NCBI RefSeq assembly: GCF_964204645.1
Contig: NC_134034.1
Coordinates: 13,211,962 to 13,275,961, forward strand
DNA from: Tubulanus polymorphus
Taxonomy: Eukaryota; Nemertea; Palaeonemertea; Tubulaniformes; Tubulanidae
Length of the DNA: 64,000 nt
Direction: 5' to 3'
In this document: positions 2,923-62,368 of the stretch, in pieces
Layout: each line of letters opens with the position of its first letter
Numbering within the stretch: position 1 is the stretch's first letter
The notes under the pieces: generated by a model
Database searches by the model: none
Seen by the model: only the letters and a program-made list of their open reading frames with translations
Told to the model about the DNA's origin: nothing
Program-made: the position numbers and the translations under genes

Positions 2923-3378
2923 TGTGGGTTTGGTAGTGATGCTTCGAATTTGTCTCCTTGATAACTCCTTATATCCATGAATGACTGCTCTGTTAGGGAT
3001 CCTATATTATACTGTATTATGATAGCGAGAAAACGCATTTTAAGGTTTCGTTTATGCGTATGAAAATTTCCTTTACGCGTCGCAAATAGACCACCATAAA
3101 TATTAATGTACCAGGTACGTACTAGCTTTTTAAAAATTTATCAGACCATCACGACGAGCATCATCCATCATAATTAGGTATGGACTGGTAAAACGACTGT
3201 GTCTCTATCGGCAATGGGACAATTTAACTCTGATGAACGTTGTTGTTGCTGACTCACGCGGCGTGGAGAAAATTCGTATGGGTTCGTTTTAAACTTGGTT
3301 GATGGGGTCGGAATTTTGGAAACTTCGGTGTCAAAAATTTCGGAAGATTTATGCCTAGATTGATTCCCATCGATCGGC

Positions 3379-3733
3379 ATCGTCCCCGGCAGACATTCGA
3401 ACCTGGTGATATCGAGACTCATGTACGTACGAAACCCTGCCACACTTGACCGAGTGCGCAGCTTAGATGATGTCATTGTTAGCCAATCAGAGATCCCGTT
3501 CTATTTTATCCAGGGGTATCAATTGATAGTTTATCTGCGGAATTTGCCTCAGCCATTATACAACGGGCAATCCGATTGGTGCCTCGTGTTTTCGTGCGGC
3601 AAACCTCCGCGCATCATGTACCTGCGCACCCGGTTTTAGTGTGGCAATGTTTCGTGCCGTGGCTGAGTCTAAAGCGATGCCATCCGTTCCCCACCAGGCG
3701 CCATCAGGTTCGAATCCCTGCTGGGAAAGGATG
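3379..3733. mobile_element. Foldback element with tRNA-like arms (family T), copy 1
   Basis: This element shares its ends and interior with copies at 46003, 48799 and 58407. Its right arm, read outward, has a box-A-like TGGCTGAGT and a perfect box B GGTTCGAATCC; the left arm is an inverted, more decayed version (CGAACC followed by a CCTGCCACACT block). The interior carries the shared AGATGATGTCATT and CCAATCAG motifs. The box A to box B distance is longer here than in the other copies because of an insertion of about 18 bp. It is non-coding. Function is unknown; mobility would have to be supplied in trans. Confidence 0.7.
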
Positions 3734-6034: not shown

Positions 6035-6112
6035 GCAGTCTGGTAGGGTATCGTGCCGTGGCCGAGTGTAGCGATCGGCGATCAGGTTCGAATCCCTGCC
6101 TGGTGAGGATTG
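6035..6112 (+). mobile_element. Solo arm of family T (tRNA-like)
   Basis: Only the right arm of family T is present: GTGCCGTGGCCGAGTG (box-A-like) followed by box B GGTTCGAATCC and CCTGCCTGGTGAGGAT. No left arm is found nearby. It could be a truncated copy or the progenitor-type SINE-like unit. Confidence 0.6.
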
Positions 6113-7265: not shown

Positions 7266-7670
7266 TTCCGACAGGTGCGAATTTAATTTGACTCAACTAA
7301 GACATAGTTCAACAGTTGTGTATTTTTAATTTGACTCCGGACCCAGTTCCACAGTTGTGTAGGTTTGATTTGACTCCGGATTCAGTTCCACAGTTGTGTG
7401 GGTTTAATTTGACTCTGGACTCAGTTCCACAGTTGTGTGGGTTTAATTTGACTCTGGACTCAGTTCCACAGTTGTGTGGGTTTAATTTGACTCCGGATCT
7501 AGTTCCACAGTTGTGTGTTTTTAATTTGACTCCGGACCCAGTTCCACAGTTGTGTTTATTTGACTCTGGATCCAGTTTAAAAGACGCAAAGCCGACTCTG
7601 TGCGGATCCTTGAATTTTGACCCAGGGATCCAGTTCCACAGTCTTTTGTGTTTCAATTTGGTTCTAGTCC
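7266..7670. repeat. 39-bp tandem array (array 1)
   Basis: About ten imperfect units of 39 bp, each built around CAGTTCCACAGTTGTGTG and a TTTGACTCCGG block. Successive CAGTTCC motifs at 7383, 7422 and 7461 give the 39-bp period exactly. Because 39 is a multiple of three, both strands stay open and give 13-residue peptide repeats, which I regard as an artefact. The unit core equals the tip of foldback family D (12111, 12442) and recurs, inverted, in a second array at 42441-42930. Confidence 0.92.
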
Positions 7671-7810
7671 AGGGCTAAATTTGATCGGGAAACTTCATAC
7701 GATCTACGACTCTCGAATAGCCCGCGTGTTCTTTGTACCGTCCAGTCCCTCCACCTAGCGGTCGCGTCATAATCACTGGCTCTTGTTTTATCCTGCAGGT
7801 GGTGCATCGG

Positions 7811-44112: not shown

Positions 44113-46002
44113 TCTATTCCGCGTTCCATACGCGTATACAATACATAATCAAATATGTGTCTATATAAACGGATCAAAACGCGCTTATAATCGTTAATCA
44201 TAAATAGCATTCCTCGACTCATATAATAACCGAATCGGGGTTCAATAAAATTCATATTCACATTCGTTCGTGCGTGTGTGAGTTATAACTACAATATGCG
44301 ACGCGACGCCGATAAAAAACCAATAAAATATGCACTGACCTTGCGCTGAACGAACCATCGTGTATGAGCGTGCGTGTGTGTGTACATGTGTGTGCATTGT
44401 GTATACACCATACACACAACGCGTATACGATTACACGCGACGAACACTCGCGTTACCGTGGCAACCATGCAGACGAGATCCGCTTCGAACCGGTTCTACT
44501 GTCTACGCGGACAGACGGCTTTTAACTACACTTTGTGTAATCGCGCAGTTCCTAATCCGGTGCCTATTATGATTAATTCGTACGATGTTTCATTGTAATT
44601 ATAGTTAGTACGACAGACAGCCAGACACAATCACCAGCTGCTTGTAAAACACGCCTACGATACCGATCGCGACACAATAGATTACACATATAATTGTATG
44701 TTAATCTAGGTAGACTGATGATGAGACTGGGAACGCATGGGAAAAGCCGCCGCGCGACAAACAAGCTAATATTGATTGTTCACGTATAAGGGAGTGTCCC
44801 GATAGATTAACATAAATATACATTTATAGGTATATCCCGCGATATGTAGGTCAACCCCAAAGTGTAGAACACAAAAGTCAATATAGACGAATCCTCCAAT
44901 ATACATTTACATAGGTCAACCCCAATCGCAGAAATTAAGAATGGTTAACCGCTTATAGTAGGAAACGACCACAGGACGCCAATCCACAACAAGATCATTA
45001 ATTTTTCATTTTTCCGAGAAGATAGATGAGACAAGGTTCACGACTTACGTGAATTAATCGGTCGAGTAAAACACATTCATTTAAATTGAGTAAATTCGTG
45101 AGTTCGAGTTTAAGTGAGCGAGATCGTTGCGAGTATACAACGAACGTTTTTATATATGCTCTAATCAAATGAGAATTAATTTCACACTAAACAGCTGAAC
45201 TAATGCGACCTATTCAAACTGTTGATGATGCGTTCATCTACGTCGATACTGCAGCAGATGTGAGGGATACATTGGTTAACATAATGACGTTAGAGAAGTC
45301 GTTGGTTGGTTACCAGCCCACCGGCGTCGGAGATTAGTCGCACGTAATTACAGAAGATAAATATAGCTGCAAAGCAGCGATAACGGTCAATTCATAAACG
45401 TCGTTGATTTGTTATGTAAATAATCGACAAAATGGCGTCATCACGTGATAAAAGTGCGTAATTGCGCGACCTCTACAGGCGTGGCGCGTAACTAGCCGTT
45501 TCGCAAATTCGAACAGATCGGGTGAAGCATCACGAATGAGCACGCGGTATACACACCAAAATCACTTCATACCTACTTGTTATTGTACGTTGAGATAGGT
45601 TTACCTTGGATGCAGCTGTGGTGCAGGATCCAATCGATTCGCAAAGCGTACTTGACGTATACAAATGGAAATGGAAATTAAAACCGATGTACACAATAGT
45701 TTTCAGACGCGAGCTACGTAGCAGTACTAGTCCAAAAATCGAACTAGTAGATACATGCGCGCCCTATGCGTTCTGTTCGAACTCGTTTATATCTATCTCA
45801 TGAATACATATCTCATTATCCGATCGGGGATTGAAATTGCGGTTGAAATTTAAATATATTGCCCGGTTAAAATGCGTAATGTGCATATGGATCATGCCTA
45901 TGATAATAACCGTGATTTGCCGTATATATTAAGTCCTACCGTTATAAGACTAATTCGCTGGCCGATTATTGGACTTTTTTCAACAAACGCATATAACCAA
46001 CA
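44113..46002. other. Gene-free stretch
   Basis: No exon is supported. A GT/CA-rich stretch lies at about 44365-44430. Nothing else with clear structure is seen. Confidence 0.5.
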
Positions 46003-46325
46003 ATCCTTCCACGGCAGGGATTCGAACTTGATAGCATCGCTAGACTCAGATACAGCACGAACCCCTACCACATTTTACCGGGTGTGTTGATTCGTGCGCA
46101 GGTTTGCCGCACGAAAACTTGTGACACCAATCAGATCGCTGAGGCAAATTTCGCGGAAAATTATAAATGGACCAAAATAAGATTTGATACATGCATCTGA
46201 TTGGCTAGGGCTAATGATGACATCATCTAAACTGCGCATGTAGCTGCGCAGTCGGGCTAGTGTGGTATGGTCTCGTTCCATGGCGAGTCTCGATGCCACC
46301 AGATTCGAATTCCTGCTGGGGATGA
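46003..46325. mobile_element. Foldback element with tRNA-like arms (family T), copy 2
   Basis: The left end ATCCTTCCACGGCAGGGATT carries the inverted box B (GGATTCGAAC...). The right arm ends CAGATTCGAATTCCTGCTGGGGAT, in which box B has one substitution. The interior TCTGATTGGCTAGGGC and ATGATGACATCATCTAAACT is shared with the copies at 48799 and 58407. Confidence 0.8.
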
Positions 46326-48798: not shown

Positions 48799-49065
48799 CA
48801 TCCTCCCTTGGCTGGGATTTGAACCTGATGGCATCGCTACACTCACAGGCACGGCACGAACCCCTGCCACACTAGACCGGGTGCGCAGGTACATGCGCAG
48901 CTTTACCGCACGAAGACTTGCGGCACCAATCAGATTGCTCGTTGTATAATCGCTGAGGTCAATTTCACGGAATAACTATAAATGGGAAAACCCGAGCTAA
49001 AATAAAACGGGATATCTGATTGGCTGATAATGATGACATCATCTAAAATGCGCGTGTAGCTGGTG
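48799..49065. mobile_element. Family T, copy 3, right arm truncated
   Basis: The left arm has GGCTGGGATTTGAACCTGATGG (box B complement with one change) and the CCTGCCACACTAGACCGGGT block. The interior GGGATATCTGATTGGCTGAT and ATGATGACATCATCTAAAAT matches the other copies. The right tRNA-like arm is lost after GCGCGTGTAGCTG. Confidence 0.75.
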
Positions 49066-56777: not shown

Positions 56778-58406
56778 TAAAACACAGATCGCAATATGCA
56801 TTAGAGAAATAAGCCCCAGAAAAACCCCTATGACGTCATCGGGGTACCAAGTGACTGGATATAGACCTTAGAAAAAAAACCGCCTCCGTATCGCCAAGTA
56901 GCCTAGCGACTCATCTAGAAAAGATACCGCCGAGTAGAAGCGCCCTGTGACGTCATCAGGTTACGATGTGAGAGGCTAATGGATCTATTGGGATCTGAAC
57001 ATTTTTTTTCAAAATAGGCGTATTATTGGAATCAACCCAAATTCATATTTTGAGTTATGATGCGTGTGTTCCAACCCTAAAACTCACGAAATTCTGCCAC
57101 ATCAAACAATTCAAAAATTTAAAATTATCTTGAATCGTTTTGAGGCATAAGAGGCGCCACCTAGGTCCGCGGCGTGGTACTTACAACTAGCCTGTTTGAA
57201 ATGACGTCACGACACTGTTGGCACTGTTTCGATTCGCAATGTTCTGGAAAGAGTTAAAGTTAGGAAGGAGGTCCCCTTGTTCAAATTCTCAGATCACTTG
57301 ATAATAAAAAAGTGTCTACATCTCGAAATGTCGTGGTTTGCCGCGCGCAAGATTACGGAAGCGCTCTTGGGACATATCTATTCTTAAAAAACAATTCTAG
57401 GTTTACTCCGAGTTTGTGACTCGGGATAGAATAGGATTTTAGACCTTCGAATATCTCTTTTAACTGAGAAATTAAAACTAGTTTTATTCGGAGTAACGTA
57501 TTTCGCGTTACAAACTCGGATTCAATCTCCAAAACCAAATCACTTTTAACTATTTGATATTATCTAGATTCAGTAATTTTAGAATTAGTTAAATTAACTG
57601 TAAACTCAAGGAGATGGGTGGAAGGATTCCTCCAGAAATTTAACGAATAAAACAATACCAATTGCGTTGATCAATTATGTTGTTGGTTCCCATAGCCAAA
57701 TGATCGATATCAATAAAGTGAACACAAACCCACAACAAAAAAAGCCGAGAAGATAATTTGATATTTAGGCACAATTCTATGAGCCATGATCGAATTTATT
57801 GAACAGTTTTATTATGATACGCTACCCTCTGACTCGGTTGTCAAAACATCAGATTATTTCCTATTTTCTTTCATTTTATTGTGGGTTTTTACATGTCATT
57901 ACATTGTGGATTTTAGCTCAGTGACGGCCAGCCATCTTCCACTAAAGACGTTGGCCGTGTGCCTGTTATTTTTATTGTATTGTCCCAGTAGGGCGATATT
58001 CATGTGTACGCGCAATCTAGTCTAACTAGATTGCGCGTATAATCCTACCGTTTCAGTGAAAAGGTTCGGCCTGAGGGAGAAATACTTACAAACTATTTCA
58101 ATTGAAATGAAGAAAACCAGGGTTTTCCATTTATACCATGGGTTTTTTTTTACTTTATTGATATCAGACAGTCATCCTGTCTGTCGAAAACAGCACGTGA
58201 AAAGATCTAAATTATCTAAATCATTGAACACGTGAGTAGACATTGTTCAGATTATTAGCGTAGAAACGACACCGGTAAAAAAATCTTGCGTGTCACGAAA
58301 ACCTCCGATGTACGATGTCCGTGGGGAAACATCTTGTACTAACCGAATTTCGTAATGATAAAATTACCAGTTTGATAAAAACAAATCCATAATTGCCTGA
58401 AAATAC
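56778..58406. other. Gene-free stretch upstream of GCNT
   Basis: The missing first exon and promoter of the GCNT gene may lie here. I could not place them. A perfect 15-bp hairpin is at 58007-58039. A CTCF-like complement (GGCGCCACCTAGG) occurs near 57150. Confidence 0.4.
58007..58039. repeat. Perfect 15-bp hairpin
   Basis: TACGCGCAATCTAGT, a three-base loop CTA, and ACTAGATTGCGCGTA. It is not followed by a T run, so it does not look like a terminator. Confidence 0.9.
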
Positions 58407-58758
58407 CCATCCTTCCACGGCAGGGATTCGTAGGGACCTGATGGCATCTCGCTACACTCAGCCACGGCACGAACCCCTGATACAGTAGACCGGCTGCGCA
58501 GGTACGTGCGCAGCTTTGCCACGCGAAAACTTGCGGCACCAATCAGATCGCTCGTTGTACAATCGTTGAGTTGAATTTAACGGAAGAACTGTAAATGGGA
58601 AAACCCGGGCTTAAATATAACGGGATATCTGATTGGCTAATAATGACATCATCTAAGCTGCGCGTGTAACTGTGCGCACTCGGTCTAGTGTGGCAGGGTT
58701 TCGTGCCGTGACATTCTCGATGATGCCATCAGGTTCGAATCCCTGCCGGGGAGGATGG
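58407..58758. mobile_element. Foldback element with tRNA-like arms (family T), intact copy 4
   Basis: This is the best copy, 352 bp, running from CCATCCTTCCACGGCAGGGA to its inverse CCCTGCCGGGGAGGATGG. It is flanked by a direct repeat AAAATAC (58400-58406 and 58759-58765; eight bases if the shared G is counted), which indicates transposition. The right arm reads outward with GTGCCGTGA-CATTCTCGATG and a perfect box B GGTTCGAATCC. The left arm carries, on the minus strand, GTGCCGTGGCTGAGTGTAGC (box A) followed by a box B copy with changes. The centre has ATCTGATTGGCTAATAATGA and ACATCATCTAAG. There is no coding capacity. Confidence 0.88.
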
Positions 58759-58765
58759 AAAATAC

Positions 58766-60080
58766 TGCACTAAGCTGCTGCTGGTATTCTCTGTAACTAT
58801 CAGACACCTATACGTGCTGGATATTCAAACGACGCATAGATAATGAGTACGACTCCAACTTAAAAACATGCGGGAACTCATTATGAACCATCGCGTTAAG
58901 CGTGTTTATTTACTGTACAAATATTGTATCGTCGAATTTTACATCGGATTAAACCACCGGGGATTTCATATTAACGCGATCGTACAAAGCAAACATTTTT
59001 CTTACATAGGAAAATGCTACAAGAAAAGTCGGGAATTCGTAAATTCGCGGGTATTACTGTGAGGTTAAACCGAAGCGTACTAAAACGAGGTTCGACTGCG
59101 CTCGGTTACATAAACCACGCAGTAATAGCGAAATGTATGTTTAATTCATTCGGTTGATGATAAGTGATAAGAAGTATTTGAAAATATCGAAAACCAATAT
59201 TCTAAGTATCTATTTCTAAAAATGTTATCACGAGAGGAATAATAGCGTTGCCTGTGCCTGATGTACGAACTACGCGCCTGTTGTAACATGTCGGTATTGA
59301 AACTGATATGATGATAATTTGTTTTTGGGGATTATCGCTATCTGTTGATCATGAACTAGCCGGTTCGAGCAAATCGAAGCTATCAGCATGCATAATTCAC
59401 GAAGACACTCATAACAAGAAAACTTACTTGAAAGTTTGTTGCCGCCTCGAAAAATAGCATATATTGTACAATACCGTCGACTGTCGTGAACGATAGTAAT
59501 GTAAATTATAAAGTACTAATGGATCAAGGAAGTTATTTTCGATTTGAGTTTATCGATAATTGAATTGAATTGACCGACAACCAGTCTAGCCCGGATATAT
59601 TGATAACGAAAGCGCTCATCCTCGCAAAAACAATGATCGAAATTTATCAAAAACAAGACTTATGAAATATTTCTTTTTTTATAACAAAATAAAAACAATT
59701 TACTCTTATAATGATTGTTTTGAAACGGCAATATTGATGACGTAGTGCACATCGACGGACGGGTATTTCAACGATGTAAACAGACGCATTGCCTATCCGT
59801 CCTATCTTACTAACGATAAACGAAGCATTCAAACCTTACGTTTCAAGTATGAAATGTCACCTGGCCCCCAGGCTTACCGGGATTAAACAAAGCTATTGTG
59901 TTTTAGATAATTAGACATAAACCGGTTGCTATCAGCAACGAGACACGAATTAAATCATCTTTGAACGCTTCCTCTTTCACTTCGTGTATGTGAATTATGA
60001 TGAGTATGTATATAATATGTGGTTACTATATTATAGCCTACATGACGGTTCGATCATTAGGACTCGGTTTTTCGCCATGA
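58766..60080. other. Gene-free stretch
   Basis: No exon is supported. The motif TTGATGACGTAG(T/C)GCACATC near 59736 also occurs at about 117-136, which may mark a diverged dispersed repeat. A short TTGAA tail-like run is at about 59556. Confidence 0.4.
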
Positions 60081-60836
60081 TCTTCGTGTTGTTTATCTTC
60101 CTTCGTGTTGTTTATCTTCCTTCGTGTTGTTTATCTTCCTTCGTGTTGTTTATTTTCCTTCGTGTTGTTTATCTTCCTTCGTGTTGTTTATCTTCCTTCG
60201 TGTTGTTTATCTTCCTTCGTGTTGTTTATCTTCCTTCGTGTTGTTTATCTTCCTTCGTGTTGTTTATCTTCCTTCGTGTTGTTTATCTTCCTTCGTGTTG
60301 TTTATCTTCCTTCGTGTTGTTTATCTTCCTTCGTGTTGTTTATCTTCCTTCGTGTTGTTTATCTTCCTTCGTGTTGTTTATCTTCCTTCGTGTTGTTTAT
60401 CTTCCTTCGTGTTGTTTATTTTCCTTCGTGTTGTTTATCTTCCTTCGTGTTGTTTATTTTCCTTCGTGTTGTTTATCTTCCTTCGTGTTGTTTATTTTCC
60501 TTCGTTTTGTTTATCTTCCTTCGTGTTGTTTATCTTCCTTCGTGTTGTTTATTTTCCTTCGTGTTGTTTATCTTCCTTCGTGTTGTTTATCTTCCTTCGT
60601 GTTGTTTATCTTCCTTCGTGTTGTTTATCTTCCTTCGTGTTGTTTATCTTCCTTCGTGTTGTTTATCTTCCTTCGTGTTGTTTATCTTCCTTCGTGCTGT
60701 TTATCTTCCTTCGTGTTGTTTATTTTCCTTCGTGTTGTTTATTTTCCTTCGTGTTGTTTATCTTCCTTCGTGCTGTTTATCTTCCTTCGTGTTGTTTATC
60801 TTCCTTCGTGTTGTTTATCTTCCTTCGTGCTGTTTT
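60081..60836. repeat. 19-bp tandem array, about 40 copies
   Basis: Unit TTCGTGTTGTTTATCTTCC, nearly uniform, with C/T changes at single positions (TATTTTCC, GTGCTG). Because 19 leaves a remainder of one when divided by three, all three plus-strand frames read the same 19-residue peptide in rotation and all are open. I regard these long frames as artefacts. Confidence 0.98.
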
Positions 60837-62368
60837 GCCAGGGCGGTTATGTTCGAATGATTCAAGATAAAACATTGAGTCTCCCGCGTAACGACGTAAG
60901 ACCGGTCCCAGCTCATTACGATTCTCGCCAGTTTGAACTCATTTAAGTTCTGTATCCAATCTAACAACCGAAGACTTGTCTCAGCTCATTTTGGTTCTAA
61001 AGCAAAACAACTTATAACAAGATCAGTCTATGTTCGGTTCTGAACCCAAGCTTACAACGTATGCAGCTGTCGATTTCAACTCTGTCGAATATGCGTCTAC
61101 TTTTTGATTATAGGTCTTTAGAAAAAGGTCGTTAACCTGTCGGTCTGTAGAATGTGATAATGGTGATCGTCTGGCGTCCAATACTCGGAAAACTAGTGAT
61201 CGCGCGATTAAAATGAATTATACTCGCGAGCGGTAAAGAATGACCGTCGGAAAACGTGTCGTCGGATCAAAAATCATTTATATTTTGAGTCGGGGTTCGA
61301 AACCCCACAAGCGAAGATCAATGGGTTAAACGAAAACGAAACCATCTTGAAAAATAAGAGAGCAATCTAACAACAATTTAAGACCAGTCTTACCCTATTT
61401 TAGTTGCCAATCTCAGAACTAATCACCAGTCGAAGCTCCGTTTGTTTTTGTTTTTTTTTTGTAACCGATCTTAAGGAGAAGTGAAACATTAAACAAGTGA
61501 GTCACGTCATCATACCTCACCGCCGCTCGACCAGTTTTCGTGAATAGTTTCCCGACTGGTATACGCCTACGTTTAGAATCGGTAAAAATCGCCCTTCTAA
61601 AGCGCTCGAAATCCCGACGCTGCTCTACACGGCTCTACGCTACAACTCGTCACGAAGTTTATCGCGTCCTGAAGTTTTATGAAGCTGTTTGTCACGCGTG
61701 CGAGCTTCAAACAATGATGCCGGTGAAATTATCTGCAGCATTTTGTGTCGGGTTGCGAACACTACATGCAACAAACACACCCCCCCCCCCCTTCATATTT
61801 TTTTCTTAAAAACGGGAATCGGATACTCACTTATATCATTTGCACTGAATCTCACTTAACTCTGTATAAGTCCAACAAAAAAAAAACATCGTGCATTTTG
61901 ATATAACGGCCATTGTGTATCTGATTTGCGCATATAAATCGTGCACCGAAATCTTCCAACCCATGTGGACGTAGGCCTATATGATGCATTGCCTTTAGAA
62001 TCCTTTCACGTGAAACGTATTCCTCGTGCAAGAGCTGAAGTGTACGGGTTTAATTACCCTCGTGTGAAAAATCTCTAAAATCTGCGAGAATTCGTAAATC
62101 TGCCCTTCTTTATTCAATGTCGTCGCCGAATAGAAAACAGGCGATGATGCAACGCGTTCACTGTTGACATCGATTGGTCGTCATGGAGATGGGGGGAATC
62201 CCCACTTTCTTTTTTATGTGGTTCTTTAGAAAATGGCCTACAAACGAAAAATTGTGAATGTGTGGGGGATTCACGAAGATTCCGGCCTATCGCGAGCCTT
62301 GAATATGAAATCTTATATGGAACATTATAGGAAATTTAACAACGGCAACCGGCGAAAATATAGGAACT
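60837..62368. other. Gene-free stretch
   Basis: No exon is supported. Diverged pieces of family B (AAGACCGGTCC, ATCTAACAACCGAAGACTTG near 60898-60980 and ATCTAACAACAATTTAAGACC near 61365-61390) are scattered here. A C run is at about 61780-61791. Confidence 0.45.

What the first reader, a model, noticed from the sequence alone, without database searches (positions are those of the whole stretch)
58407..58758. Foldback transposon whose two inverted ends each carry a tRNA-like Pol III promoter (family T)
Each arm, read outward, has a box-A-like TGGC(T/C)GAGTG and a box B GGTTCGAATCC only about 20-25 bases apart, ending in CCCTGCCGGGGAGGATGG. The arms are inverted around a conserved core (ATCTGATTGGCTAATAATGA, ACATCATCTAAG). 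One copy has a 7-8-bp target-site duplication (AAAATAC), which points to cut-and-paste DNA transposition. SINEs normally have one tRNA head and a retroposition tail; here the tRNA-like parts are the terminal repeats and no A-rich tail is seen. Three more copies and a solo arm lie in the window. It may be a MITE that captured or converged on a tRNA promoter, or two SINEs frozen head to head and then mobilised as a unit.
Basis: partly seen in the sequence, partly recalled or inferred. Interest (0 to 1): 0.75.

Follow-up and report, generated by a model that had tools for sequence, protein, structure and literature searches.

The report
Abundant foldback MITE with 9-bp duplications
This is a short, gene-less DNA transposon with inverted ends, present in roughly a thousand or more copies in this 268-Mb eukaryotic genome; its ends contain one motif that looks like half of a tRNA-gene promoter, but not a whole promoter, so it is mostly an ordinary cut-and-paste parasite.

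Summary
The element is real. Window 58408-58757 (350 bp) starts CATCC, ends GGATG, and is flanked by GAAAATACC/GAAAATACT, an imperfect 9-bp target-site duplication (TSD), not 7-8 bp. The genome holds 2,463 matches to a 30-nt arm-end pattern (reversed control: 0). Of 21 loci sampled from these, 20 carry the arms as an inverted pair. Of 42 copies with good ends and unique flanks, 33 have a TSD (27 of 9 bp, 6 of 8 bp), against 0 of 8,193 mispaired flanks. It is a non-autonomous DNA element: a foldback-type MITE, most likely moved by a Mutator-like (MULE) transposase. No MULE with these ends was found at the 32 of 56 MULE matches examined.

The claim that each arm carries a Pol III promoter is not supported. 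Box B (GGTTCGAATCC) is tRNA-grade in both consensus arms. The proposed box A is in the left arm only (38 of 40 copies; right arm 0 of 40), 24 nt before box B against 43-45 nt in 19 tRNAs of this genome. In the window copy neither arm has both boxes. Rfam and ARAGORN see no tRNA. Copies with tandem arms or without the core also have TSDs, so the arms appear to be the mobile unit.

The parts
58399..58407 (.). left target-site duplication GAAAATACC
   Evidence: 8 of 9 identical to the right flank
58408..58757 (+). whole foldback MITE (350 bp; family consensus 340 bp)
   Evidence: 40 copies aligned
58408..58516 (-). left inverted arm (read outward on the minus strand)
   Evidence: inverted match to 58655-58758, 77%
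58455..58464 (-). box-A-like word TGGCTGAGTG, left arm only
   Evidence: consensus TGGCTGAGTGTA scores 5.8 against 5.6-20.4 for 19 real tRNAs; 24 nt before box B in the consensus
58419..58440 (-). left-arm box-B region, disrupted in this copy (CAGGTCCCTACGAATCCC in place of CAGGTTCGAATCCC)
58517..58654 (+). core, including CCAATCAGAT, TGTAAATGGG (consensus TATAAATGGG) and ATCTGATTGGCTAATAATGACATCATC; missing in palindromic copies
58655..58757 (+). right inverted arm
58732..58742 (+). box B GGTTCGAATCC (right arm, intact)
58758..58766 (.). right target-site duplication GAAAATACT
3378..3733 (-). older copy of the same family
   Evidence: 75% to the window copy; flanks match 7 of 9
46002..46324 (+). 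older copy (71%); no TSD seen
48799..49062 (+). right-truncated copy (84%)
6037..6110 (+). solo arm (remnant)

Best explanation
A non-autonomous, high-copy DNA transposon: a foldback-type MITE with a 340-bp consensus and arms of about 100 bp or somewhat more. A transposase supplied in trans binds the two inverted arms, excises the element and inserts it with a 9-bp (less often 8-bp) staggered cut, which makes the TSD. The 8-9-bp TSD and long inverted ends point to the Mutator-like (MULE) superfamily. Shown: ends, TSDs, pairing of the arms, copy number, copies without the core and copies with extra tandem arms that have TSDs. Inferred: cut-and-paste, MULE as the helper, and the arm motifs as transposase-binding sites. 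The tRNA-like word GGTTCGAATCC is part of the end sequence; on present evidence it is not part of a complete Pol III promoter.
For: 2,463 arm ends against 0 for the reversed pattern. 48 of 56 sources with a near-full-length match have both ends within 2 mismatches of CATCCTCCC/GGGAGGATG; after dropping shared flanks, 33 of 42 have TSDs (27 of 9 bp, 6 of 8 bp), 0 of 8,193 in mispaired controls. 20 of 21 sampled loci hold the arms as an inverted pair. Core-less palindrome L080 (177 bp) has an 8 of 9 TSD and the 671-bp composite L065 an 8 of 8 TSD. L022 has four extra 63-bp units outside its own left arm, all inside a perfect 9-bp TSD. The genome has 56 matches to the MULE domain PF10551. MULEs typically have 8-10-bp TSDs and TIRs over 100 bp, and Aedes Muta1 has 8- or 9-bp TSDs, 145-bp TIRs and over 300 putative non-autonomous derivatives (PMC5225508, passages).
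Against: No element that encodes a transposase and shares these ends was found: 34 loci covering 32 of the 56 PF10551 matches showed no credible arm, and some of these loci had only about 1.5 kb on each side. The MULEs whose ends I could see have other TIRs. TSD length alone does not exclude other superfamilies with 8-9-bp TSDs (Merlin; recalled). 9 of the 42 copies, and the 8 sources dropped for poorer ends, show no TSD.
Confidence: 0.72

Rival explanations
1. The arms are working Pol III (type 2) promoters: the MITE captured or evolved tRNA-like promoters, and each end is transcribed outward.
For: Box B is a perfect tRNA-grade match in both consensus arms (score 18.1; 19 real tRNAs 13.8-18.0; 3 of 4,000 background 135-mers reach it; 1 of 3,000 dinucleotide shuffles of the left arm has an exact B box). 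The left-arm consensus also has TGGCTGAGTGTA, a box-A score at 15-39 nt that 47 of 4,000 background 135-mers reach, and that word is the best conserved stretch measured (0.99).
Against: The right arm has no such box A (0 of 40). The left box A is 24 nt from box B, against 43-45 nt in 19 tRNAs of this genome, and scores 5.8 against 5.6-20.4. At 40-60 nt only weak words occur (2.6 and -0.5; 127 and 420 of 4,000 background 135-mers do as well). No tRNA match in Rfam at E <= 10 in the window copy or 20 loci; 0 ARAGORN genes in 34 loci. Box B is no more conserved than the element (0.93 and 0.98 against 0.94). Neither arm of the window copy has both boxes.
Confidence: 0.08
2. A tRNA-derived SINE family, or two SINEs fused head to head, moved by retroposition.
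For: Only the B box, plus box-A-like letters in the left arm.
Against: TSDs of 8-9 bp, precise symmetrical ends, no tail, arms in inverted pairs in 20 of 21 sampled loci, tRNA covariance negative.
Confidence: 0.02
3. A MITE of another cut-and-paste superfamily with 8-9-bp TSDs (for example hAT, P or Merlin type), not MULE.
For: 6 of 33 TSDs are 8 bp; the helper has not been seen; ends beginning CA and ending TG are not peculiar to MULEs (recalled).
Against: 27 of 33 TSDs are 9 bp, whereas hAT and P make 8 bp (recalled). The 8/9 mix is the pattern of Muta1 (PMC5225508, passages). MULE domains are present in the genome. Other superfamilies were not searched for.
Confidence: 0.2

Closest known systems
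Muta1 and its derivatives (MULE of Aedes aegypti; PMC5225508, passages read)
   Same: 8- or 9-bp TSDs; TIRs over 100 bp; over 300 putative non-autonomous derivatives with often truncated TIRs and variable internal sequence; variable numbers of repeats in the TIR
   Different: Muta1 TIRs contain 12-bp tandem repeats and its transposase is known; here most arms seen are single units of about 100 bp or more, and no helper was found
Tetris/DAIBAM (foldback element and MITE of Drosophila virilis; PMC4079207, passages read)
   Same: non-autonomous foldback with 8-10-bp TSDs, no helper found, tandem units of arm sequence that can expand, a MITE with the same ends
   Different: Tetris arms reach 1.7 kb with about 220-bp units and three structurally complete copies; here a 340-bp element with roughly a thousand or more copies and 53-69-bp tandem units in occasional copies
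tRNA-derived SINEs (recalled)
   Same: contains GGTTCGAATCC, the B box
   Different: no tRNA head by covariance, no A box at normal spacing, no tail, TIRs and 8-9-bp TSDs

Membership tests
MITE (non-autonomous TIR DNA transposon) | short, gene-less, precise terminal inverted repeats, TSD, high copy number | tested here: met
   340-bp consensus; 2,463 arm ends; 33 of 42 copies with TSD against 0 of 8,193 controls
Mutator-like element (MULE) superfamily | 8-10-bp TSD | tested here: met
   27 of 9 bp and 6 of 8 bp among 42 copies; definition from PMC5225508 (passages)
Mutator-like element (MULE) superfamily | long terminal inverted repeats (over 100 bp) | tested here: met
   arms of about 104-110 bp; arm-to-arm matches run from 69 to 85% identity; 77% in the window copy. 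Imperfect repeats.
Mutator-like element (MULE) superfamily | moved by, or sharing ends with, an element that encodes a MULE transposase | tested here: inconclusive
   no credible arm at 32 of the 56 PF10551 matches; 24 not examined
Foldback transposon | long inverted arms with internal or tandem repeats | tested here: met
   inverted arms in 20 of 21 loci; tandem arm units in L022 (five starts 63 bp apart), L025 (three, 53 bp apart), L065 (two right arms, 69 bp apart); only a minority of the copies seen carry them
tRNA-derived SINE | tRNA-related head | tested here: not met
   no tRNA in Rfam at E <= 10 in the window copy or in 20 loci; ARAGORN 0 in 34 loci
tRNA-derived SINE | tail and retroposition-type TSD of variable length | tested here: not met
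   ends CATCC/GGATG, TSDs of 8-9 bp only among those found
Pol III type 2 promoter | box A and box B at tRNA-like spacing | tested here: not met
   box B met; box A in the left arm only, spacing 24 nt against 43-45 nt
Pol III type 2 promoter | transcripts or TFIIIC occupancy | not testable with these tools
   no RNA or ChIP data available

The most novel reading that the evidence does not exclude
The transposon's ends are lone B boxes that bind TFIIIC (extra-TFIIIC-like sites). A DNA transposon has then scattered thousands of tRNA-grade TFIIIC sites, mostly as inverted pairs, through the genome, which could serve as insulators or could help the element to insert near, or be shielded like, tRNA genes. 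Alternatively the transposase and TFIIIC converge on the same palindromic TTCGAA core.
Probability: 0.1. Interest if true: 0.65.

Novelty: new member of a known kind. Interest (0 to 1): 0.27.

Why it matters
As it stands, it adds an abundant, well-delimited foldback MITE family with clear TSDs, and a natural series (full length, core-less palindrome, tandem-armed) suggesting that the arms alone are enough to move. If the B boxes were shown to bind TFIIIC, it would be a DNA-transposon source of Pol III factor sites, a role usually discussed for SINEs (recalled).

Tried and rejected
Box-B-like end near a MULE (L084:895-922 = L086:7895-7922, E 5e-4): rejected. The word lies inside another high-copy repeat that continues past it (39 of 40 scored places 96% identical), and the supposed left end at L086:535 has one match in the genome, itself.

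L071's variant core as a lead to a longer element: its middle 80 bp belongs to a different high-copy repeat. The older window copy 46002-46324 as a query: the 40 places scored are copies of about the same size.

The inner word TAGTGTGGCAGG (within GGTCTAGTGTGG) of the right arm as a better box A, 43 nt from box B: looks like a tRNA-Glu box A (recalled), but its score against this genome's tRNAs is -0.5, reached by 420 of 4,000 background 135-mers, so not accepted. Two earlier versions of that scoring were wrong: one search had tRNAs in the wrong orientation (L107, L113, L121) and one truncated (L125); still had L116 reversed. One search replaces both. The BLAST of arms against tRNAs quoted in the report was run only, with that faulty set.

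first gave TSDs as half 8 and half 9 bp; this was an alignment shift of one base at the right end, corrected by anchoring on GGATG.

Four contig ends for host identity: I recognised no telomere repeat by eye; host not identified. A 26-nt arm pattern in viral contigs: 0. Literature: no paper linking MITE ends to Pol III boxes stood out in the listings (listings and abstract starts only; one of these papers, PMC11893794, was checked by passages and concerns a transposon-derived protein at 7SL genes); the library is open-access only.

Full report
WHAT IS THERE. The window lies in a 268-Mb eukaryotic genome of 77 contigs ('eukaryotic' is inferred from size and content). At 58408-58757 there is a 350-bp element that begins CATCC, ends GGATG, and is flanked by GAAAATACC on the left and GAAAATACT on the right. 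Its two ends are inverted copies of each other: 77% identity over 113 aligned positions. Arm-to-arm matches within the other copies listed run from 69 to 85%.

IS IT MORE THAN CHANCE. The word GGTTCGAATCCCTGCC occurs 13 times in the window with up to 3 mismatches, 0.26 expected. A 30-nt arm-end pattern (28 specified letters, up to 3 mismatches) occurs 2,463 times in the genome; the same pattern read backwards occurs 0 times. With two arms per element this means roughly 1,200 elements; diverged arms are missed, and tandem arms are counted more than once.

ENDS AND TARGET SITES. I fetched the 39 best other copies and 21 loci that cover 23 of the 34 zero-mismatch arm ends listed on contig C1 (one search lists only the first 100 places of the genome). 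Of 61 sources including the window, 56 had a near-full-length match; 48 of them had both ends within 2 mismatches of CATCCTCCC/GGGAGGATG; dropping copies that share a flank left 42. Of these, 33 have a TSD with at most one mismatch: 27 of 9 bp (19 perfect) and 6 of 8 bp (all perfect). Mispairing left and right flanks gave 0 in 8,193 trials. 41 of the 42 begin exactly CATCC and 41 end GGATG, but this set was chosen for good ends. None of the 8 sources dropped for poorer ends shows a TSD at those ends, nor do 9 of the 42; old or rearranged copies are the likely cause. The 9-bp target sites look weakly symmetrical (G at position 1 in 11 of 27, T at 3 in 16, A at 7 in 11, C at 9 in 12), as one would expect of a paired transposase; this was not tested against chance. 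The 40 copies aligned differ from their consensus by 3-10%; they were selected for similarity to the window copy.

ARMS COME IN INVERTED PAIRS. In the 21 sampled loci, 20 have both arms inverted (some with deletions) and one (L072) has a single, truncated arm. The sample was drawn from arm ends without mismatches, so it favours young copies.

THE ARMS ARE THE MOBILE UNIT. L080 is two arms with no core (177 bp) and has an 8 of 9 TSD. L065 is a 671-bp composite (a cut-short element, a whole one and a second right arm) bounded as a whole by an 8 of 8 TSD. L022 has five left-arm starts 63 bp apart, the innermost being the element's own arm, and the whole 591 bp lies between two copies of GGAAGCGAG, a perfect 9-bp TSD. 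L025 has three units 53 bp apart (no TSD found). L078, a 110-bp palindrome, shows no clean TSD. This is foldback behaviour, as in Tetris of Drosophila virilis (PMC4079207, passages). Whether the tandem arms were there before insertion or grew afterwards is not known.

IS THERE A POL III PROMOTER. I scored the arms with boxes taken from 19 tRNA sequences of this genome (20 fetched from the 60 listed; the partial L125 dropped). None of the 19 appears to be a Leu or Ser tRNA, whose A-B gap would be longer (recalled). Box B of both consensus arms scores 18.1 (tRNAs 13.8-18.0); 3 of 4,000 background 135-mers from the window do as well. Box A is poor. It scores 5.8 (tRNAs 5.6-20.4; 47 of 4,000 background 135-mers do as well at 15-39 nt) and starts 24 nt before box B, where all 19 tRNAs have 43-45 nt. 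Between 40 and 60 nt the best words score 2.6 (left; 127 of 4,000) and -0.5 (right; 420 of 4,000). In the window copy the left arm's box B is broken and the right arm has no box A, so neither arm has the promoter described. Rfam's tRNA model gives nothing at E <= 10 in the window copy or in 20 loci of 25,336 bases; ARAGORN finds 0 genes in 34 loci. By BLAST the arms share only the T-arm region with tRNAs (best 23 bp, E 0.07, in which three of the tRNAs were reversed and so could not match). Conservation of box B across copies (0.93 left, 0.98 right) is that of the element (0.94); the left box-A word stands at 0.99, which is high and speaks mildly the other way, but covers 10 letters only. Read outward, such a promoter would transcribe the flanking DNA, not the element. 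I therefore take box B as a real, non-random word of the ends with no shown Pol III role. A lone B box could still bind TFIIIC; that is the novel case.

WHO MOVES IT. Long TIRs (over 100 bp) and 8-10-bp TSDs are given as typical of MULEs in the Muta1 paper, where all 14 Aedes families have 8-9-bp TSDs and 13 of the 14 have derivative non-autonomous elements (PMC5225508, passages). [quoted passage not shown] A survey finds complete MULEs in 222 of 4,268 arthropod species, 3 of them Hymenoptera (PMC13359780, passages); I have not established that this host is an arthropod. The genome has 56 PF10551 matches. I looked at 34 loci covering 32 of the 56: no credible copy of these arms. Where ends of those MULEs were visible they were different, with tandem-repeat TIRs and in two cases 8-bp TSDs. 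The helper may sit at one of the 24 unexamined matches, be lost, or not be a MULE.

VERDICT. A foldback-type MITE, probably MULE-driven, of a known kind; observation partly confirmed, TSD corrected to 9 bp, tRNA-promoter claim reduced to a lone B box.

Noticed in passing
window 59954-60946: Long minisatellite open in several frames (repeats of FVLFIFLRVVYLPSCCLSS).
   Followed up: no
window 7301-7678: A second, shorter protein-level tandem repeat (PQLCGFNLTLDSV units) open on both strands.
   Followed up: no
L086:4374-7346 and L131:323-2991: PF10551 MULEs with GCCGACCAGC minisatellite TIRs (ends GGCTCCTACTAAAAG) and 8-bp TSDs (GAATTAAT; GTTGTCGG): a different foldback MULE family in the same genome.
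   Followed up: partly
L021, L024, L027, L034, L035, L038, L043: Seven of the best copies share flanks (right flank GATGCCTCTACT): the MITE rides inside a larger duplicated repeat, five of the seven at C10:13.94-14.17 Mb, the others on C6 and C7.
   Followed up: no
L071:709-789: The variant core contains an 80-bp unit of another high-copy small element, inverted at some places (613 candidates, 40 scored).
   Followed up: partly
L086:7560-8101: An abundant repeat (39 of 40 scored places 96% identical, 1,108 candidates) with several CCAAT-like words that carries TAGCTTAGTGGGTTCGAATCCC, a box-A-like word directly next to box B.
   Followed up: partly
window 58466-58479 and 58692-58707: Each arm holds a second, inverted, diverged copy of the terminal motif (left GGCACGAACCCCTG; right GGCACGAAACCCTGCC; against GGTTCGAATCCCTGCC), possibly a second transposase-binding site; not tested.
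   Followed up: no
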